Shown: positions 51,836 through 60,752, counted from the stretch's first letter. The stretch is DNA of 64,000 bases from an uncultured Alphaproteobacteria bacterium (GCA_951812775.1 OX638326.1:3607391-3671390), one strand, 5' to 3'. Translations and numbers: made by a program. The notes: generated by a model not told the origin, from the sequence alone.

Positions 51836-52729
51836 GTGGCGGAAACCGGAGACCACAAATACTTCAAACCCAAGTGCGTTCATCGCAGCTACACGCAGGA
51901 AGAGCTTAACGTCCAGTATAGTGCCCGCGGCACGGCACCTGATGGCGACAAGTATCGCAACTTCATCTCTGAGAATAGCGCACGGGTGCGTGACGAGATG
52001 GAGTGCCGGATAGATGTACCTTACGGTCCCACAGATGCTGAAGTCGTCAATGTATTTCCGGCGGAAAAACCTGGCTCACCAATTGTTTATTTTATCCATG
52101 GAGGATATTGGCGTTCCTCGAGCCAGAAGGATGTCGACCTTTACGCTGAAGCGTTGGTGCCGGCCGGATGCGCCTATGTAACCGTAAATTATCTTCTGGC
52201 GCCTGAGGCCACGATCGACGAGATCGTGCGTCAGTGTCGTGCCGGGCTCGCCTGGGCCTACAACAATGCGGAGAGTTTTAACGGCGATGCCAACAATATT
52301 CATGTTGTTGGGCGTTCAGCGGGCGGACATCTCACCGGGATGATGCTGGCTGATGGCTGGCGCGAGGAGTTTGGCCTGCCCGACGACTTGATCAAGAGTG
52401 CTTGCGCATTATCGGGCCTTTTTGATTTGGAGCCCGTTCGTCTCTCCAATGTAAATGAATGGGCCAAGCTCGATAAGGAGGCAGCTTATCGCAACAGCCC
52501 GGTGCATCACCTGCCGAAAATTCCCTGTCCCATTATCATCGCCTGGGGTGAGAACGAAACCGATGAATTCAAGCGACAGTCTGACCTCTACCGGGTCGCC
52601 TGGCAGTCGCGTGGCTGGCCATGTCAGACAATGGAGTTTGCCGGGAAACACCATTTCGCCTCGATGCCGGACCTGATGTATCCTGAGGAGCCATGCACCA
52701 AGGCGCTTCTGGCTCAAATCGGCCTATAA
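51836..52729 (+). CDS. alpha/beta hydrolase, arylformamidase-like
   Basis: A 297-residue hydrolase with HGGYW (88-92), the nucleophile elbow GRSAGGH (Ser161) and His in GKHHFASM near the C terminus. It belongs to the same group as the 507-1484 protein. The start is a GTG at 51836. It heads a run of same-strand genes (hydrolase, two SDRs, a larger hydrolase) that looks catabolic. The SDR gene begins 6 nt later. Confidence 0.87.
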   Translation: MAETGDHKYFKPKCVHRSYTQEELNVQYSARGTAPDGDKYRNFISENSARVRDEMECRIDVPYGPTDAEVVNVFPAEKPGSPIVYFIHGGYWRSSSQKDVDLYAEALVPAGCAYVTVNYLLAPEATIDEIVRQCRAGLAWAYNNAESFNGDANNIHVVGRSAGGHLTGMMLADGWREEFGLPDDLIKSACALSGLFDLEPVRLSNVNEWAKLDKEAAYRNSPVHHLPKIPCPIIIAWGENETDEFKRQSDLYRVAWQSRGWPCQTMEFAGKHHFASMPDLMYPEEPCTKALLAQIGL

Positions 52730-52735
52730 ATCTTT

Positions 52736-53494
52736 ATGTCCGATCTCAAAGGACAAGTTGCTTTAATTACCGGTGCCGGGGGGACTCTTGGCAGTTCGCA
52801 TGCTCGAGCCATCGCGGCAAGAGGGGCACATGTTGTCATTCATGACATCATCGCAGATGCCGCGGACGCGGTTGTCGATGATGTCGTAAGGCTTGGCGGT
52901 TCCGCTTCTCCGATGGTTTGCGATGTCACCGATAGGCAGGCGGTCAAGAGTTGCGTTGATGCTGTTACAGCGGAGCATGGCGCAGTTTTTATTCTGAATA
53001 ACAATGCCGGCATTACCGGCAACAACGCGCTGATCAAAGATATCGACGAAGATTTCTTTGACCGGATGTTTGATATCCATGTCAAAGGAGCCTTCCTGGT
53101 GACGCAAGAGATTGTCGACGGCATGAAAGCAGCTGGCGGCGGTCGGATTGTAAATACAATCTCGGGTTGTGCGCATTCCGGTGCGGTCTCCGGCTCTCAT
53201 TATAACGGGGCCAAAGGCGCTATTGTCGGGCTTACCCGAGCTTTGGCCTCAGAATTTACCCCTTTCGGTATTACCGTTAATGCAATCGCGCCTGGTGTAA
53301 CGCCAAGCGGTATGACACGGGTGCGGCTGGGTGAAGAGGGGCTCGCGGCACGCGCGAAACAGCTGGTGTCTGACAGATTGCCGACGCCAGAGGAAATTAC
53401 CACCGGCGTGATGTTCTTTCTTGCCGAAGAGGCAGCCATCGTCACCGGGCGCGTTTTGAATATGCAGCAACCACGCAAAGCCGAGGTGATATGA
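52736..53494 (+). CDS. short-chain dehydrogenase/reductase
   Basis: A 252-residue classical SDR with the cofactor motif TGAGGTLG (12-19), NNNAG (88-92) and the catalytic Ser143, Tyr156 and Lys160 (SGSHYNGAKGA). The acidic residue after strand 2 (IHDIIAD) suggests NAD(H). It overlaps the second SDR gene by 4 nt (ATGA). Confidence 0.9.
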   Translation: MSDLKGQVALITGAGGTLGSSHARAIAARGAHVVIHDIIADAADAVVDDVVRLGGSASPMVCDVTDRQAVKSCVDAVTAEHGAVFILNNNAGITGNNALIKDIDEDFFDRMFDIHVKGAFLVTQEIVDGMKAAGGGRIVNTISGCAHSGAVSGSHYNGAKGAIVGLTRALASEFTPFGITVNAIAPGVTPSGMTRVRLGEEGLAARAKQLVSDRLPTPEEITTGVMFFLAEEAAIVTGRVLNMQQPRKAEVI

Positions 53495-54120
53495 GCACCG
53501 TCTTTATCACGGATGGCGACCGGCCGCTCGGTACAGCGTTGCGCGAGTCTTTCACAAATGCCGGATTTGATGTTGCGGTCCACCCGGCAAATGGCGATGC
53601 CAAAAGCCTGGCTGCAGCTATTTCCAGCGCCGGGCCTGTAGAACTGCTTATTAATAACGCGGAACCAGAGTTCGACCGTCTCGCATTTGAAGAAATCGAT
53701 GAAAATATTTTCGTTAACATGATGACCGGCGTCGCCCGCACAGCCTTTTTCGCTGTTCAGGCGGTTCACCCGATCATGCAGACGCTGGGCGGGGGGAAGA
53801 TAATCAATGTTTCGTCCTCCGCACCGGTTTGCGGTATGACGGGCGGCGCCCATTTTACAGCCGCGAAAGGGTCGCTCTATTCCTTTACGCGCAGCTGGGC
53901 GAATGAACTTGCTACAGACAATATCCGGGTCAATCTCGTTGCAGCGGATGTCACAACCGGGACCGCGGCAGAAGATGGTGGAGGCGAAACACCCCTTGGC
54001 CGGCCTGTAACAATTGAAGATGTCGTGGAAACGATCACCTATTTAGCGGGCTCTGGTGGTGATATGATCAGCGGTCAGGAAATTATCGTCGATGGCGGTT
54101 TTACGCGGGTCGGGTTTTGA
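53491..54120 (+). CDS. SDR-fold protein without the catalytic tyrosine
   Basis: A 209-residue shortened SDR. The cofactor loop reads FITDGDRPLGTAL in place of TGxxxGxG, and NNAE stands where NNAG is usual. The YxxxK motif is HFTAAKG, so Phe122 replaces the catalytic Tyr while Lys126 and Ser109 remain. The C terminus is normal (DMISGQEIIVDGGF). Overlap with the upstream SDR by ATGA suggests 1:1 translation, so the pair could form a heteromer in which this subunit is structural or regulatory. Confidence 0.82.
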   Translation: MSTVFITDGDRPLGTALRESFTNAGFDVAVHPANGDAKSLAAAISSAGPVELLINNAEPEFDRLAFEEIDENIFVNMMTGVARTAFFAVQAVHPIMQTLGGGKIINVSSSAPVCGMTGGAHFTAAKGSLYSFTRSWANELATDNIRVNLVAADVTTGTAAEDGGGETPLGRPVTIEDVVETITYLAGSGGDMISGQEIIVDGGFTRVGF

Positions 54121-54139: not shown

Positions 54140-55498
54140 ATGAGCGCTGGATGGACACCACCTGAAGAAATTGACCGCGCATCGTGCATCGCGGACTCAA
54201 ACGAAATTCTTGCCCGGGCTGATATTCCTTATACCGAGTTTGAGGACCTTTTCCGTATAGAGGCAGTGGGTCTTGACTGGGATATCGGCGCCCAAATCTA
54301 CGAACCATCAGACCCATCGCAAGCGGCAATCGGTGCAGATGGCAAAAAGGTTGGTGTCTATCTGTTGTCAGGCGGCGATGGCGATTTCAAAACCATGGCA
54401 CCGGTGGCGAAGCCCCTTTGCGGAAAATTCGGCTTCAAGGTTACGACGATGACCTATCCCGGACGGTTGTATCTGGACAACCCTGATCGTCACTGGCCCG
54501 ACGACACTATCAATCCCGACGGCACTGTCCGGACACCGCAATGGCTCACCGGTGAGCACATCACACCGGACCAGTACGAAGTCATTACGGATACCTCTAT
54601 TCGCGAACGCTACGGCACCCGAACAGTCCTGCACGCCAAAGCGGGAACGGTTTTTTGGGATCGGATGGCCGGCTGGCCAGCGGCGTTTGAAAAGGGCGGG
54701 ATTGAAGCGATGGCCCGCAACATGCCGGAGGATGAGTACTCCATCTACGTGCATGGTCATTCGACCGGTGGTCCCTTTGTCTTCATGCTGTCGCAACGAG
54801 TACCCAATATCGCCGGGGTAATGGCGGTTGAGAATTCCGCATTTGGCTATATCAATGAAGCGAAACTGGCAAAGCAGGGTTCGCTTGGCGCTATTGGTGA
54901 TTTTGAAAAAGTCGTTACCGAAACCAAACGCACTGATCCGTTTTATGAACTCTACATCAGAACCTGGCGAGATAAGGCGCGGTATATCGGGCCGGAAAAG
55001 CTTGGCCATGATGGCCCTGTTGCGTTAATGCGGCTGCCCTCTTTGATCGAGGAAGTGATGGCGGCCTGGGATGGCGCCAAAAATGAACCTCAGTTCAAAT
55101 GCGAATACACGGTTAGTACAAATATTGAGGTGTCTTTGGAAAGTGGCGCACGCGCAACAGCTGAACGGCTACAGTTGAATGAAGAAGATACCGAAGCCTT
55201 GGTTCAGCAATTTCTCGGTTATGGACGCGAGCTCAAGGGGCAGGATGTAAAACCGGTGCCAAATGTTTTGTTTTGTGTTTCTAAAGACAGCCGGGATCAC
55301 GGTGTCGAAAGCTACAAATCTTTGGTCATGCCAATGTATGCGGAAATGGACCCCGCTCCCAAAACCTCTCTGGTTCATTTTCAGGCTGGGGTGCATTCCT
55401 ATTGGTGGGCCGAAAAAGACCTGCCATCAGGTATTGCGCCCGCCGTGGCACAGCTCTGGCATGATGCGGTTATGGGTGGGTACTTCCTGAGGGACTAA
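54140..55498 (+). CDS. large alpha/beta hydrolase-like protein, conserved, unknown
   Basis: A 452-residue protein. The segment VHGHSTGGPFVFML (Ser about 208) is a nucleophile elbow, VGVYLLSGGDGDFK could form the oxyanion region, and the late AGVHSYWW could give the His. I do not recognise a named family. It is cytoplasmic by lack of a signal. The gene lies 19 nt after the SDR pair with GGAGG before its ATG, and ends 1 nt from the convergent LysR gene, so it closes the catabolic-looking operon. Confidence 0.7.
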   Translation: MSAGWTPPEEIDRASCIADSNEILARADIPYTEFEDLFRIEAVGLDWDIGAQIYEPSDPSQAAIGADGKKVGVYLLSGGDGDFKTMAPVAKPLCGKFGFKVTTMTYPGRLYLDNPDRHWPDDTINPDGTVRTPQWLTGEHITPDQYEVITDTSIRERYGTRTVLHAKAGTVFWDRMAGWPAAFEKGGIEAMARNMPEDEYSIYVHGHSTGGPFVFMLSQRVPNIAGVMAVENSAFGYINEAKLAKQGSLGAIGDFEKVVTETKRTDPFYELYIRTWRDKARYIGPEKLGHDGPVALMRLPSLIEEVMAAWDGAKNEPQFKCEYTVSTNIEVSLESGARATAERLQLNEEDTEALVQQFLGYGRELKGQDVKPVPNVLFCVSKDSRDHGVESYKSLVMPMYAEMDPAPKTSLVHFQAGVHSYWWAEKDLPSGIAPAVAQLWHDAVMGGYFLRD

Positions 55499-55499
55499 A

Positions 55500-56399
55500 T
55501 CAGCCGTCAACGGCGTCGTGCACATTAGTGCGCAGCGCATCGAGAAACGAGTTGGTTGCGATAGACCGTGCCACCCGCGTGTTGACGATAGTGGCAACCG
55601 TCCGCGTCACAGCGGGGTCAGTGGGTCTGAAGACGATATTATCCGTTGGGAAGTCAGCAGCTGTCGTACGGTCCACGAGCGTGACACCAGCGCCTGCTTC
55701 AACCATTTTGCACAGTGATGCATGGGTACGGGCTTCTCCGACGACCGTTGGCTTGACCTTTTGTTGACGTAGTGCTTTCCAGATGACCGAGCCGTATTCG
55801 CTGTCCTCCGGCAATACAACCATTCGGCGCCCATTGAGTTCCTTTAGTGGAACGACTTTCTGACTGGCCAAGGGGTCGTCGGCAGCCATGGCGAGTAGGA
55901 CACTGGTTTCGAATAGAGGTTCGGCTTTAATCAGTGTATCTGAGACGGTGGCCGACGCGATCCCAACGTCATAACTCTGAGAGGCAATGCCCTCAACAAC
56001 GCCAGCGGTTCCAGCACTTTCGAGTTCAACCAGGATGCCAGGATTGTCCTTGATGAATTGTCCGATGATGCTTGCAACGAAGCCATCTGCATATTTTGAA
56101 AGAGCGATGACGCGTACTGTACCCGTTGCCTTCTCGCGAATACCTGTAGCCACCTGGGCAATCCGGTCCAGCCCGATGAAAGAGCGTTTGACCTCTTCAT
56201 AGAGAGCGTGCGCGTCCTGTGTGGGCACAAGACCCCGGGCGCGACGCTCGAACAGCTGAAAGCCGACATTGCTCTCCAGATCTGCGAGTAGACGGCTAAC
56301 GGCGGGTTGTGTGACGTGCAAAACCTCACTGGCGGCAGTGGCGGAGCCAAACTCCATCGCTGCCCGGAATGCTTCGATCTGCCGTAAATTCATCCGCAT
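55500..56399 (-). CDS. LysR-type transcriptional regulator
   Basis: A 299-residue LTTR. The helix-turn-helix is at about 5-62 (LRQIEAFRAAMEFGSATAA, TQPAVSRLLADLESNVG), followed by a PBP-like effector domain. It is divergent from the three-gene SBP-fold cluster, and a perfect dyad lies in the shared 140-bp spacer. It likely controls that cluster, perhaps also the hydrolase/SDR operon that runs towards it. The start may be ATG 56399 or ATG 56393. Confidence 0.93.
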   Translation of the reverse strand: MRMNLRQIEAFRAAMEFGSATAASEVLHVTQPAVSRLLADLESNVGFQLFERRARGLVPTQDAHALYEEVKRSFIGLDRIAQVATGIREKATGTVRVIALSKYADGFVASIIGQFIKDNPGILVELESAGTAGVVEGIASQSYDVGIASATVSDTLIKAEPLFETSVLLAMAADDPLASQKVVPLKELNGRRMVVLPEDSEYGSVIWKALRQQKVKPTVVGEARTHASLCKMVEAGAGVTLVDRTTAADFPTDNIVFRPTDPAVTRTVATIVNTRVARSIATNSFLDALRTNVHDAVDG

Positions 56400-56431: not shown

Positions 56432-56457
56432 AAGATAATACAATTCGCTATTATCTT
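56432..56457. promoter_or_regulatory. LysR-type operator dyad
   Basis: Perfect 9-bp arms AAGATAATA (56432-56440) and TATTATCTT (56449-56457) with an 8-bp centre. It contains T-N11-A-like half-sites. It lies 33 bp from the LysR start and 83 bp from the first SBP-fold gene, the usual place for a recognition-binding site. Confidence 0.75.
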
Positions 56458-56539: not shown

Positions 56540-57475
56540 ATGATTACATTGAGACTTGAAAATACCGCGCCTTTCCAGGGGCTTGCTGAACTTGTAGCCG
56601 ATAAGGAAGGGCTGTTCGAGAAAGAGGGTATCGCAATTGAATGGGTAGATCGCGATAAAGGTGTCAAAAAGGAAGTTCGCACTGATATCACGCGTCCAGA
56701 CGAACTGGACCCGCATTCGAGCCATGGCAAGCTTTTCGAACAGGGCAAAGCAGATATGTATAACGCCTGTGAATGGGGTAATTATTGCCGCGTTCAGGAT
56801 AGTAGTGTGCAGTCGGGCCGTCAGGTTGGTCGGCGCGCAATTGTGACCTTCGCAGGCCTCGTTGTACGTCCCGAGTCTGATGTCTACACACCTCAGCAGC
56901 TGGCCGGAAAACTGGTTGGCGTGCCGTTCTATTTTGGTACGCATTATCTCGCGCTTCATATGCTCGAAGGTTTCATGCCGCGTGAAGATATTAATATCTG
57001 CAGCGCGCCGAATGGGTCTCGGATGCGTTACGATTCTATGATGTCTGGCGAAGTTGAAGCGACAACTTTGACCGAGCCGTATCTGTCATTGGCGGAGAAG
57101 AATGATTGTAGGGTCGTCGCCACGGCGTTCTATCACGGTACGGAGGTGGCCTCTGACAAGGTAGATACCGAAACCTACGCCAAGTTCAACCGGGCTGTTA
57201 AAGAAGCGGTAATTCGGATTAACGCGGACAAAACGAAATATCTCCAATACTTCATCGATTGCCATAAAGAGAAAGACCCGGAGGTTGGTGAAATGACCGT
57301 GGCCGATTTGCAGGCCAGCCGCATCGTCGTCGTTGACCCTGCACCGATTCCGGCTGATGAGCTGGCGCGGACCGCAGAATGGATCAAGAGCTGGGGCATG
57401 TTGACTGAAACCGAAGACCATATGGATCTGGTCAATATGGATATTCAGGAAGGCGCCCACGCGGCAGCCGAATAA
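56540..57475 (+). CDS. cytoplasmic SBP-fold (NMT1/THI5-like) protein, paralogue A
   Basis: A 311-residue protein of the periplasmic-binding-protein fold, related to NMT1/THI5-like and 4,5-dihydroxyphthalate decarboxylase-like families. It starts MITLRLENTAPFQGLAELVA with no signal peptide or lipobox, so it should stay in the cytoplasm and act as an enzyme rather than as a transporter subunit. Invariant parts shared by the three paralogues are SHGKLFEQGKADMYNACE, WGNYCRVQD (Cys77, Cys83, His62), YFGTH, PNGSR, LTEPY, GTEV and SWGML. No ABC permease or ATPase gene is near. It is the first gene after the LysR operator. Confidence 0.75.
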   Translation: MITLRLENTAPFQGLAELVADKEGLFEKEGIAIEWVDRDKGVKKEVRTDITRPDELDPHSSHGKLFEQGKADMYNACEWGNYCRVQDSSVQSGRQVGRRAIVTFAGLVVRPESDVYTPQQLAGKLVGVPFYFGTHYLALHMLEGFMPREDINICSAPNGSRMRYDSMMSGEVEATTLTEPYLSLAEKNDCRVVATAFYHGTEVASDKVDTETYAKFNRAVKEAVIRINADKTKYLQYFIDCHKEKDPEVGEMTVADLQASRIVVVDPAPIPADELARTAEWIKSWGMLTETEDHMDLVNMDIQEGAHAAAE

Positions 57476-57497
57476 CTACAAATACTGCATTGAATGT

Positions 57498-57521
57498 TGG
57501 GTGGGGACACAGGTCTCCACC
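57498..57521 (+). other. intercistronic hairpin between paralogues A and B
   Basis: GGTGGGGAC and GTCTCCACC form a 9-bp stem (one G-U pair) with a short loop, upstream of the GGGAGG ribosome binding site of paralogue B. No T-run follows, so it is more likely an mRNA processing or stability element than a terminator. Confidence 0.45.
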
Positions 57522-57546
57522 CCTTCGCCTTTACAGGGAGGTCGAA

Positions 57547-58479
57547 ATGAAAAAGTTGGTTCTGGAGACGACAGCGCCGTTTCAGGGGTTGGCAGAACTT
57601 GTTGCCGATAGGGAAGGGCTGTTCGAAAAAGAGGGCATTCAGATCGAATGGGCTGATCGTGAAAAGGGTGTCGATAAAACGGTTCAAAAGGATGTCACGA
57701 GCCCGGATGGAGTCAATCCGTTTGCCAGTCATGGCAAGCTTTTCGAAGAGGGCAAGGCAGATATGTATAACGCCTGCGAATGGGGCAATTACTGCCGCGT
57801 GCAGGATACCAATCAGGGCGGCCGTCAACTGGGCCGTCGCGCCATCGTGTGCTTTGCGGGGCTTTATGTGCGGCCGGACTCTGAGGTCTATACAGCGCAG
57901 CAGCTGGTGAACAAGGATGTTGGCGCGCCTTACTATTTTGGAACGCATTATCTGATCCTGCATATGCTCGAAGGGTTTATGAAGCGAGACGAAATTAAGC
58001 TGGTTAAAGCGCCGAACGGTTCACGTTACCGCTATGATGCGTTGATGGCGGGTGAATATGAAGCAACCTGCCTGACAGAGCCTTATGCCTCACTCGCTGA
58101 GAAAGAAGGGTGCAGGTTGATTACGTCATCGTTCCTGCATGGTACCGAAGTTGCATCTGACCGGGTTGATACCGAGACCTACACCAAGTTCAATCGCGCG
58201 GTAAAGGAAGCGGTTAAGCGGGTTAATGCTGACCGGTCTGCCTACATGCATTACTTCATTGATTACTACAAAGACAAGGATCCCCGGGTCGCCGCAATGG
58301 ATGTCAGCGACCTTATGGAATCCCGTGTCGTTGTTGTTGATCCGGCTCCAATCCTGCAGGAAGAAGCGGATCGGACTGCCGCCTGGATCAAGAGCTGGGG
58401 CATGTTGGCTGAAACGGATGAGGCCTCTGAGCTAATCAATATGGACGTTCAGCAAGGCGCACATGCGGCTGCTGAATGA
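57547..58479 (+). CDS. cytoplasmic SBP-fold (NMT1/THI5-like) protein, paralogue B
   Basis: A 310-residue paralogue starting MKKLVLETTAPFQGLAELVA at ATG 57547, chosen because GGGAGG lies 6 nt upstream and the start then equals that of paralogue C. It keeps all motifs of paralogue A (SHGKLFEEGKADMYNACE, WGNYCRVQD, YFGTHYLILHMLEGF, GTEVASDRVDTETY). It has no signal peptide. It overlaps paralogue C by 4 nt (ATGA), so the two are translationally coupled. Confidence 0.75.
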   Translation: MKKLVLETTAPFQGLAELVADREGLFEKEGIQIEWADREKGVDKTVQKDVTSPDGVNPFASHGKLFEEGKADMYNACEWGNYCRVQDTNQGGRQLGRRAIVCFAGLYVRPDSEVYTAQQLVNKDVGAPYYFGTHYLILHMLEGFMKRDEIKLVKAPNGSRYRYDALMAGEYEATCLTEPYASLAEKEGCRLITSSFLHGTEVASDRVDTETYTKFNRAVKEAVKRVNADRSAYMHYFIDYYKDKDPRVAAMDVSDLMESRVVVVDPAPILQEEADRTAAWIKSWGMLAETDEASELINMDVQQGAHAAAE

Positions 58480-59411
58480 AGAAGCTTACCCTAGAGACGA
58501 CAGCACCGTTTCAGGGGCTACCAGAACTCGTCGCCGATGACGAAGGATTGTTCGAGGCGGAAGGCATTGAAGTGGCCTGGGCGGACCGGGATGCTGGCCC
58601 CAAACCCGGCACTCAAAAGGATGTGAATAGCCCGGTAGGTGTTGATCCTTTTGCCAGTCACGGCAAGCTGTTCGAGCAGGGCAAGGCCGATATGTATAAT
58701 GCCTGTGAATGGGGCAATTACTGTCGTGTTCAGGATTCCGACAGTGGTGGTCGACAGGTAGGACGGCGGGCAATCGTTGCTTTCGGGGCGCTGGTGGTGC
58801 CGCCGGGCTCAACAGCTTATACGCCGCAACAGATGGCGGGCAAAGTTGTGGGGTTGCCCTATTACTTTGGCACGCATTTCCTGACATTGCTTATGCTGGA
58901 AGGTTTCTTGCCGCGCGATCAAATCAAAACCTGTAAAATGCCAAACGGTTCGCGGCGTCAGTATGATGCGTTGCTGCGGGGCGAATATGACGGGGCCTGT
59001 TTGACAGAACCCTATATTTCGCTGGCGGAGAAGCAGGGGTGTCGCGTGTTGGCGGCGGCGTCTTTCCATGGAACCGAAGTCGTATCCGACGAGGTCGATG
59101 TTGAGACCTATGCAGCTTTTAACCGTGCGGTTACCGAAGCGGTGCGTCGGATCAACGCCGATAAGCAAGGCTATATGCATTATTTCATCGATTATTATAG
59201 GGAGCGTGATCCGGAAATCGGCGCGGTTCTAACGGTGGATGATTTGCGGCCGAGCCGGTTGATCGTTCAAAACCCTGGTCCTATACCGGAAGACGAATTG
59301 AAACGATCTTATGAGTGGATCAGAAGCTGGGGCATGTTGGCGGAAACCACGGTCGCGAGTGACCTCGTCGACATGGATGCCCAAGACAAGGCACACGCAG
59401 CAGCGGAGTAA
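58476..59411 (+). CDS. cytoplasmic SBP-fold (NMT1/THI5-like) protein, paralogue C
   Basis: A 311-residue paralogue, MKKLTLETTAPFQGLPELVA, ending DAQDKAHAAAE. It is more diverged in the linker (DAGPKPGTQKD) and in QNPGPIPEDE, but keeps the His, the two Cys of NACEWGNYCRVQD, and the PNGSR, LTEPY and FHGTEV motifs. The three genes probably arose by tandem duplication. Because two are coupled and all are cytoplasmic, a hetero-oligomeric enzyme or three related activities in one pathway are possible. The function is unknown. Confidence 0.75.
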   Translation: MKKLTLETTAPFQGLPELVADDEGLFEAEGIEVAWADRDAGPKPGTQKDVNSPVGVDPFASHGKLFEQGKADMYNACEWGNYCRVQDSDSGGRQVGRRAIVAFGALVVPPGSTAYTPQQMAGKVVGLPYYFGTHFLTLLMLEGFLPRDQIKTCKMPNGSRRQYDALLRGEYDGACLTEPYISLAEKQGCRVLAAASFHGTEVVSDEVDVETYAAFNRAVTEAVRRINADKQGYMHYFIDYYRERDPEIGAVLTVDDLRPSRLIVQNPGPIPEDELKRSYEWIRSWGMLAETTVASDLVDMDAQDKAHAAAE

Positions 59412-59516: not shown

Positions 59517-60752
59517 ATGGCGAATAGCGTAAACGGTATCAAACGGCGCGAAAGTGTGCCTGTAAAGGTCGGCCATGTAACGGTTGGCGGGACGGCGCCG
59601 GTCGTTGTGCAATCGATGACCAATACTGATACAGCCGATATCGCTTCAACGACCGAGCAGGTTGCGCAGCTCGCCAAAGCCGGATCGGAAATAGTTCGAA
59701 TAACAGTCGATCGTGATGAGTCCGCTGCGGCGGTGCCCCATATACGCGACGCGCTCGCCAAAGAGGGTGTTGATGTCCCTTTGGTCGGCGATTTCCACTA
59801 TATCGGCCATCAGCTTTTGACGAAGTACCCCGATTGTGCCGAAGCCCTGGCGAAGTACAGAATTAACCCGGGGAATGTTGGTTTTCGGGAAAAGCGTGAT
59901 CTGCAGTTCTCAACGATGATTGAGGTCGCCCTGAAGTATGACCGGCCAGTACGCATCGGTGTGAATTGGGGCAGCCTTGACCAAGAGTTGCTGACGCATT
60001 TGATGGATGAAAACGCTAATTCCGAAAAGCCGCGCGAAGCGACAGAAATTACGCGCGAAGCGATGATTCAATCGGCCCTCTTATCAGCAGAACGAGCCCA
60101 CGAAATCGGTATGGGACCCGAAAAGATCATCATTTCCTGCAAGGTATCGGAAGTGCAGGACCTGATTGGCGTCTATGCAGATTTGGCACAGCGCTGTAAT
60201 TATGCGCTGCATCTCGGGCTAACAGAGGCTGGTATGGGCTCGAAAGGGATTGTTGCATCGACTGCCGGTATGGCCGTTCTGTTACAGCAGGGTATTGGCG
60301 ACACTATCCGCGTTTCATTGACGCCTGAGCCCGGCGGGGATCGTACCCGAGAGGTGATCGTTGCACAGGAAATGCTCCAGACGATGGGGCTTCGGTCCTT
60401 CCTGCCATTGGTTACGTCCTGTCCGGGTTGCGGGCGTACAACGAGTACCGTCTTTCAGGAACTCGCCAGCAAAATTCAGTCCTATATCCGCGAACAAATG
60501 CCTGAATGGCGCGAGAATTATGATGGTGTGGAAGACATGGCCGTTGCTGTCATGGGGTGCATCGTTAATGGGCCTGGTGAGAGCAAGCACGCCAATATCG
60601 GTATTAGTCTGCCGGGTACAGGAGAAGAGCCAGCGGCACCTGTCTTTATCGATGGCGAAAAAGCGATGACGTTGCGGGGGCCGGGGATCGCAGAGGAATT
60701 TCAGGGTATCGTCGATGATTATGTCGATAGCCACTACGAAAAGCGCACTTGA
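59517..60752 (+). CDS. ispG: 4-hydroxy-3-methylbut-2-enyl-diphosphate synthase
   Basis: A 411-residue [4Fe-4S] enzyme of the MEP isoprenoid pathway, converting MEcPP to HMBPP. Substrate-domain motifs are [19 protein letters not shown] and [10 protein letters not shown] with NPGNVGF and GVNWGSL. Cluster cysteines are in [10 protein letters not shown] and [20 protein letters not shown]. It is complete in length. It is preceded by a 105-bp spacer after the SBP-fold cluster and so probably has its own promoter. Confidence 0.97.

What the first reader, a model, noticed from the sequence alone, without database searches (positions are those of the whole stretch)
56540..59411. Three tandem binding-protein-fold proteins with no export signal: a likely new cytoplasmic enzyme family
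All three lack signal peptides and transporter partners. They share an invariant His (SHGKL) and two Cys (NACEWGNYC) absent from ordinary binding proteins. Known cytoplasmic members of this fold, THI5 and 4,5-dihydroxyphthalate decarboxylase, are enzymes. Paralogues B and C are translationally coupled, a LysR gene with a dyad controls them, and SDR and hydrolase genes adjoin. They may form a hetero-oligomeric decarboxylase-like or cofactor-forming system.
Basis: partly seen in the sequence, partly recalled or inferred. Interest (0 to 1): 0.7.

Follow-up and report, generated by a model that had tools for sequence, protein, structure and literature searches.

The report
Cytoplasmic binding-protein-fold protein family, tandem trio
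Three neighbouring genes encode proteins that look like the external 'catcher' part of nutrient importers but have no export signal and carry an invariant cysteine found in none of the ordinary catchers checked; they belong to an undescribed family, spread over bacteria and archaea and often placed among genes for breaking down aromatic compounds, so they are probably enzymes, though no reaction has been shown.

Summary
A (56540-57475), B (57547-58479) and C (58476-59411) are 65-70% identical and have no signal peptide: the fold's first strand starts at residue 2. They belong to a family of ~310-residue proteins. Cys77 is invariant in 143 of 143 members, Trp79 in 142 and Gly132 in 143. His62 is invariant only in the close family (95/95), and the second Cys is not universal. 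No member has an export signal. None of 616 neighbouring genes of the close family is an ABC permease; three remote relatives sit beside ABC operons that have their own exported binding protein. A confident model (pLDDT 94) has the SsuA/NrtA/Thi5/DszB fold. The family is distinct from 4,5-dihydroxyphthalate decarboxylase, Thi5 and DszB. Its neighbourhoods favour aromatic catabolism: a benzoate-dioxygenase-like Rieske alpha gene lies directly downstream in 12 of 80 loci, and LigB, UbiD or true dihydroxyphthalate decarboxylases in others. All three paralogues are under strong purifying selection and share cleft residues. Haloarchaea hold a recurrent operon of three signal-less binding-fold proteins. 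Best reading: a cytosolic Cys/His lyase- or decarboxylase-like enzyme family. Catalysis, substrate and hetero-oligomerisation are inferred; a non-catalytic cytosolic ligand-binding role remains the main rival.

The parts
56540..57475 (+). Protein A, 311 aa, signal-less binding-protein-fold protein; groups with the single-copy relatives that lie between a hydrolase gene and ispG
57547..58479 (+). Protein B, 310 aa (likely start ATG 57547); AlphaFold2 model pLDDT 93.9, pTM 0.90
58476..59411 (+). Protein C, 311 aa; overlaps the stop of B by 4 nt here but not in most relatives
56723..56725 (+). Codon of His62 in A (B: 57730-57732; C: 58659-58661), invariant in 95/95 close relatives, not in distant ones
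56768..56770 (+). Codon of Cys77 in A (B: 57775-57777; C: 58704-58706), invariant in 143/143 members, part of the AC-x-W motif at the end of a central strand
55500..56399 (-). LysR-type regulator gene divergent from A; kept in 8 of the close loci
56432..56457 (.). Perfect 9+9 nt inverted repeat AAGATAATA-N8-TATTATCTT between LysR gene and A; core largely conserved in six relatives; probable LysR box
54140..55498 (+). 452-aa protein with a GHSTG motif of alpha/beta-hydrolase type, no Pfam or NCBIfam family; kept upstream of LysR in 6 loci including the window
51836..52729 (+). Alpha/beta-hydrolase (BD-FAE / hormone-sensitive-lipase-like); the partner most widely kept with A-type genes (8 loci)
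52736..53494 (+). SDR oxidoreductase; not kept in all relatives
53491..54120 (+). Second SDR oxidoreductase, overlaps the first by 4 nt; not kept in all relatives

Best explanation
A, B and C are cytosolic members of an undescribed family of type-2 periplasmic-binding-protein (PBP) fold proteins marked by AC-x-W (Cys77, Trp79) and G-[ST]-H (Gly132, His134). They most likely work as cofactor-independent enzymes on small, probably aromatic or otherwise unsaturated carboxylates. The substrate is held in the interlobe cleft, Cys77 acts as proton donor with His62 (close family) or another cleft residue polarising it, and a carboxylate-type group leaves: the chemistry proposed for DszB desulfinase on the same fold, and analogous to dihydroxyphthalate decarboxylase. 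Shown: cytosolic sequence type, family, fold, invariant residues, selection, gene neighbourhoods, conserved LysR-box core. Inferred: catalysis, the role of Cys77/His62, substrate class, and that the three gene products act together (perhaps as a hetero-oligomer) with the upstream hydrolases.
For: No signal peptide in 143 members, and high Cys content (5.3 per protein against 0.3-2.5 in other PBP-fold sets). No ABC permease among 616 neighbours of the close family: two EAA-motif hits, judged false. Invariant Cys77 and Gly132 (143/143), Trp79 (142/143), His134 (141/143). Model of the SsuA/NrtA/ThiY/Thi5/DszB fold, Z 24.1 to 17.8, which includes the cytosolic enzymes Thi5, DszB and MqnD. Rieske dioxygenase alpha gene directly downstream in 12 of 80 loci (gap 4 and 10 nt in two), with at least four separate label changes on the tree; the alpha is benzoate-1,2-dioxygenase-like. 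LigB, UbiD, dihydroxyphthalate decarboxylase, Rieske alpha/beta and TPP-decarboxylase-like genes near other members, including a ~28% identical paralogue in the same genome. dN/dS proxies 0.012-0.036 for A, B and C alike, with identical cleft motifs. DszB precedent: Cys27 proton donor helped by His60 in a mobile loop, no cofactor (PMC6100217). Conserved LysR dyad core.
Against: No activity, substrate or quaternary structure is known. His62 is not kept in distant members (17/48). Neighbourhoods vary between clades and many immediate neighbours are not aromatic genes. The DszB catalytic Cys position and its RXGG motif are absent. The window's own neighbours (two hydrolases, two SDRs) do not name a pathway. 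Three remote relatives adjoin ABC import operons, which also suits a binding role.
Confidence: 0.42

Rival explanations
1. Non-catalytic cytosolic ligand-binding proteins: binding proteins that lost their export signal and now bind a metabolite inside the cell to buffer it, hand it to an enzyme (for example the Rieske dioxygenase or the hydrolases), or signal to a regulator. Cys77 and Trp79 then simply shape the binding site.
For: The fold is that of a binding protein. Remote relatives lie directly upstream of ABC import operons with their own exported binding protein, as expected if both bind the same compound. The NrtC/CmpC C-terminal domains show that cytosolic domains of this fold can be regulatory (listed). 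Neighbourhoods are varied.
Against: No long fusion to another domain was seen in 51 members checked for length. The conservation of a reactive Cys in 143/143 and of a whole set of cleft residues is more than most binding proteins keep (the comparison with binding proteins is judgement). Three copies with identical cleft residues are hard to explain as buffers.
Confidence: 0.33
2. Single-turnover or cofactor-forming protein of the Thi5 type, using an active-site residue as substrate.
For: Thi5 is the top Foldseek hit by E-value and has the same fold (Z 20.2).
Against: No CCCFC iron motif in A, B or C (sequence). His62 is not kept family-wide. No thiamine or PLP genes recognised nearby.
Confidence: 0.06
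3. Ordinary exported binding proteins whose signal peptide was missed, or exported by another route.
For: Public annotation calls relatives 'ABC transporter substrate-binding protein'.
Against: First strand at residue 2, no hydrophobic N-terminus in 143 members, no permease partner in the close family, high Cys content.
Confidence: 0.03
4. Members of the 4,5-dihydroxyphthalate decarboxylase family itself.
For: Same superfamily, both associated with Rieske oxygenases, sometimes in one locus.
Against: Profile-profile probability only 36%, over 114 columns. The family profile does not match the solved enzyme 9jp7 at E<=10, while the neighbouring c4 proteins match it at 2.6e-108. The Cys77 motif is absent from that family.
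Confidence: 0.03

Closest known systems
4,5-dihydroxyphthalate decarboxylase (Pht5 family; PDB 9jp7)
   Same: PBP-fold enzyme with no export signal seen; coded next to Rieske oxygenase genes; sometimes in the same loci as the new family
   Different: Separate family: no sequence match of the new family profile to 9jp7, weak profile-profile match, lacks AC-x-W (FDVSE-x-SSY-like instead)
DszB, 2'-hydroxybiphenyl-2-sulfinate desulfinase (PDB 2de2-2de4)
   Same: Same fold (Z 17.8), cofactor-free, uses a Cys proton donor plus a His from a mobile loop at about residue 60 (PMC6100217); the new family has His62 in an unstructured loop and Cys77
   Different: DszB Cys27 is in the N-terminal segment, where A, B and C have A-P-F-Q-G; the RXGG motif of DszB is absent (sequence); residue-level structural alignment was not available
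Thi5 / HMP-P synthase
   Same: Cytosolic, same fold (Z 20.2; best Foldseek E-value)
   Different: No CCCFC motif in A, B or C, no thiamine context
SsuA / TauA / NrtA ABC transporter binding proteins (Pfam NMT1, NMT1_2)
   Same: Same fold, recognisable profile similarity over residues ~105-195
   Different: Those are exported and partnered by permease and ATPase; this family is neither and has the Cys77 motif
Haloarchaeal three-gene operon of signal-less PBP-fold proteins (no published name found)
   Same: Three tandem, often overlapping genes; the first product belongs to the same C-x-W family; no permease; adjacent cupin, VOC and aldehyde ferredoxin oxidoreductase genes
   Different: The three products are from three different PBP subfamilies and only the first has the Cys motif

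Membership tests
ABC transporter substrate-binding protein (functional sense) | N-terminal signal peptide or lipobox | tested here: not met
   No hydrophobic N-terminus in 143 members; model strand 1 is residues 2-7
ABC transporter substrate-binding protein (functional sense) | Adjacent permease/ATPase genes | tested here: not met
   EAA motif in 2 of 616 neighbours of the close family, both judged false hits; ATPase genes near two members only, on the opposite strand; three remote relatives adjoin ABC operons that have their own binding protein
PBP type-2 fold, NMT1/SsuA group | Two-lobe fold with similarity to SsuA/NrtA/TauA | tested here: met
   Z 24.1 to SsuA 3ksj, 267 residues, 2.5 A; Pfam NMT1_2 or NMT1 hits at E<=0.1 in 48 and 35 of 57 members; A, B and C themselves lie under the gathering scores
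4,5-dihydroxyphthalate decarboxylase (Pht5) | Sequence membership in the family of the solved enzyme 9jp7 | tested here: not met
   No match at E<=10 for the family profile; neighbour cluster c4 does match, 2.6e-108; hhalign probability 36%
4,5-dihydroxyphthalate decarboxylase (Pht5) | Decarboxylase activity on 4,5-dihydroxyphthalate | not testable with these tools
   Needs an enzyme assay
DszB desulfinase | Catalytic Cys27 in the N-terminal segment and RXGG motif | tested here: not met
   A, B and C have no Cys before residue 77 and no RXGG; DszB features from PMC6100217
DszB desulfinase | Same fold | tested here: met
   2de2 Z 17.8, 274 residues, 3.8 A
Thi5 HMP-P synthase | CCCFC iron-binding motif | tested here: not met
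   Absent from A, B and C; the motif is from general knowledge
MqnA/MqnD | Futalosine-pathway activity and gene context | not tested
   MqnD 2czl is a fold neighbour, Z 16.8; no menaquinone genes were looked for

The most novel reading that the evidence does not exclude
A new class of cofactor-free PBP-fold lyases (aromatic or dihydrodiol carboxylate decarboxylase/desulfinase type) that use an invariant AC-x-W cysteine at a different place from the DszB cysteine, spread over Proteobacteria, Binatota, Rokubacteria, a cyanobacterium and haloarchaea, and working as assemblies of three PBP-fold subunits coded in tandem, an arrangement that arose separately in Alphaproteobacteria and haloarchaea.
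Probability: 0.2. Interest if true: 0.72.

Novelty: new variant of a known kind. Interest (0 to 1): 0.5.

Why it matters
Proteins of this family are annotated as transporter parts in public genomes, so an enzyme family may be hidden under a wrong label. If catalytic, it adds to the few known cases of binding proteins turned into enzymes (Thi5, DszB, dihydroxyphthalate decarboxylase, MqnA/D) and could supply a missing step for uncultured marine and soil bacteria that carry Rieske and ring-cleavage genes. The single invariant cysteine makes the idea directly testable.

Tried and rejected
phmmer of A against the PDB gave nothing; only the 57-row profile found relatives. The dihydroxyphthalate decarboxylase hypothesis for membership was tested and dropped, although it helped identify neighbour cluster c4. 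9jp7 was not among the 50 fold matches shown, which is inconclusive. An AlphaFold model of the 452-aa upstream protein was useless (pLDDT 35). Alignment of the same genome's other NMT1 proteins to the family profile did not cover the Cys77 region, so a motif count was used instead. Literature searches for a described signal-less NMT1 family with dioxygenases found none (open-access library only). A correspondence of DszB G73 with Cys77 can be guessed by extrapolating the residue offset; it is not an alignment and is not used as evidence.

Full report
WHAT IS THERE. Three + strand genes, A 56540-57475, B 57547-58479 and C 58476-59411, code for proteins of 311, 310 and 311 aa that are 65-70% identical. 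The window lies at 3.61-3.67 Mb of a 4.15-Mb, single-contig genome whose relatives are alphaproteobacteria. Upstream are a LysR gene on the other strand (55500-56399), a 452-aa protein with a hydrolase-type GHSTG motif, two SDRs and an alpha/beta-hydrolase; downstream is ispG. Between the LysR gene and A is a perfect 9+9 nt dyad (56432-56457) whose core is largely kept in six relatives, as expected of a LysR box. The B/C overlap, however, is not conserved.

LOCATION IN THE CELL. No member of the family has an export signal. The first strand of the model begins at residue 2, no hydrophobic segment like that of an exported binding protein precedes the fold in 143 members, and the proteins carry 5.3 cysteines on average against 0.3-2.5 in other binding-protein-fold sets. 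In 616 neighbouring genes of the close family the ABC permease motif gave two hits, both judged false; ABC ATPase genes occur by two members only, on the opposite strand. Three remote relatives (Geminicoccaceae, an IS-split copy in Nostoc, and genome G172) do lie upstream of a permease and ATPase, but a separate binding protein sits between, with a clear signal peptide in the Geminicoccaceae and G172 cases. Five of eight other NMT1-type proteins checked in this genome also lack a signal, so cytosolic proteins of this fold are common here.

FAMILY AND RESIDUES. A scan of 84,980 species genomes gave 80 loci at 61-94% identity (best segment), in Alphaproteobacteria, Binatota/Deltaproteobacteria and Rokubacteria; more distant members (24-34%) occur in the same genome, other alphaproteobacteria, Nostoc and haloarchaea. 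Sampling shows a patchy spread: 14 of 385 genomes in the class at E<=1e-15. Across 143 aligned members Cys77 and Gly132 are invariant, Trp79 is kept in 142 and His134 in 141; His62 is invariant in the 95 close members but present in 17 of 48 distant ones; Cys83 is mostly a close-family feature. The motif [AMIV]C[EHKQ]W is in 95/95 close members and 0/74 other proteins of the fold.

FOLD. The model of B (47-row alignment, pLDDT 93.9, pTM 0.90) matches SsuA (Z 24.1), NrtA (22.4), the formyl-aminopyrimidine binder 3ix1 (21.6), Thi5 (20.2), DszB (17.8) and MqnD (16.8); Thi5 leads by Foldseek E-value. Cys77 is the last residue of a strand and is followed at once by a helix (residues 78-85).

NEIGHBOURHOODS. 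In 12 of the 80 loci with a following gene, the gene directly downstream of the family member is a Rieske dioxygenase alpha subunit, most similar to benzoate 1,2-dioxygenase (261 bits), usually followed by its beta subunit. Twelve of the 13 Rieske alpha genes found in these loci are at exactly this position, and the tree demands at least four separate changes of this association. Other loci have LigB ring-cleavage dioxygenases, UbiD-, BoxB/BoxC-, PaaK- and GMC-type genes (named by similarity or by eye), tricarboxylate-transport receptors, or genuine 4,5-dihydroxyphthalate decarboxylases. A ~28% identical paralogue in the same genome lies in a cluster of Rieske alpha/beta, TPP-decarboxylase-like, two dihydroxyphthalate-decarboxylase-like, VOC and amidohydrolase genes. 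The context is thus enriched in aromatic catabolism but not uniform, and the window's own neighbours do not name a pathway.

THREE PARALOGUES. A groups with single-copy relatives in hydrolase-ispG loci, while B and C form two other branches (some of the forks are weakly supported), so the trio is not a fresh local duplication. A, B and C are each kept in all five same-genus genomes tested, the window's own included, and in several metagenome relatives. All are under strong purifying selection (dN/dS proxies 0.012-0.036; synonymous sites are near saturation) and keep identical residues at the cleft motifs. This argues for a shared ligand or chemistry and joint action rather than three specificities; a hetero-oligomer is compatible but unshown. 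A striking parallel occurs in haloarchaea: seven plasmid loci hold an operon of three signal-less binding-fold proteins, of which the first belongs to this family, with cupin, VOC and often aldehyde ferredoxin oxidoreductase genes and no permease.

MECHANISM. The nearest worked-out chemistry is DszB: no cofactor, Cys27 donates a proton to the aromatic carbon as SO2 leaves, His60 in a mobile loop stabilises the thiolate (a computed mechanism with mutant support; PMC6100217). The new family offers a cysteine at a strand-helix junction and, in the close family, a histidine in an unstructured loop at a similar distance along the chain. I therefore favour proton-assisted loss of a carboxylate-type group. 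This is inference: the DszB cysteine position and RXGG motif are absent, and no reaction is known. A cytosolic binding, buffering or sensing role without catalysis remains a serious rival.

KNOWN OR NEW. The family fails tests for dihydroxyphthalate decarboxylase, Thi5 and DszB membership, has no curated Pfam or NCBIfam model that fits A, B or C above its threshold, and is labelled 'ABC transporter substrate-binding protein' in public records. No description was found in the open-access library. It is a new variant of a known kind, the cytosolic binding-protein-fold proteins, several of which became enzymes.

Noticed in passing
L097, L098, L175, L176, L177, L179, L180: Recurrent haloarchaeal plasmid operon of three signal-less binding-protein-fold proteins from three subfamilies, with divergent cupin and nearby VOC, aldehyde ferredoxin oxidoreductase or xanthine dehydrogenase genes and no permease.
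   Followed up: partly
L003, L004, L006, L007, L008: Five further NMT1-like proteins of the same genome that lack a signal peptide; several other families of cytosolic binding-fold proteins may exist here.
   Followed up: partly
window 54140-55498: 452-aa protein with GHSTG motif and no Pfam, NCBIfam or convincing PDB match, conserved in relatives upstream of the LysR gene; AlphaFold model from 6 rows failed.
   Followed up: partly
L131 1378-2277 and 5164-6156: Two proteins that look related to 4,5-dihydroxyphthalate decarboxylase, a Rieske alpha gene split in two frames, beta subunit and TPP-decarboxylase-like genes around a paralogue of the family.
   Followed up: partly
L100 1402-4179: The Nostoc plasmid member is cut in two by an IS1380-type transposase gene; an ABC operon follows.
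   Followed up: no
G002:C5:172588-173520: The C orthologue of this same-genus genome contains one in-frame TAA in the matched stretch, a possible pseudogene, stop at the gene end or assembly error.
   Followed up: no
L018: Contig labelled Flavobacteriales (TMED123) has the full alphaproteobacterial LysR-A-B-C-ispG order; very likely a mis-binned contig.
   Followed up: no
window 59517-60752: ispG follows the family genes in nine loci; probably a stable neighbour without functional link.
   Followed up: no
L141 8038-11662: Remote member directly upstream of an exported binding protein, permease and ATPase: a possible importer paired with a cytosolic handler of the same compound.
   Followed up: partly
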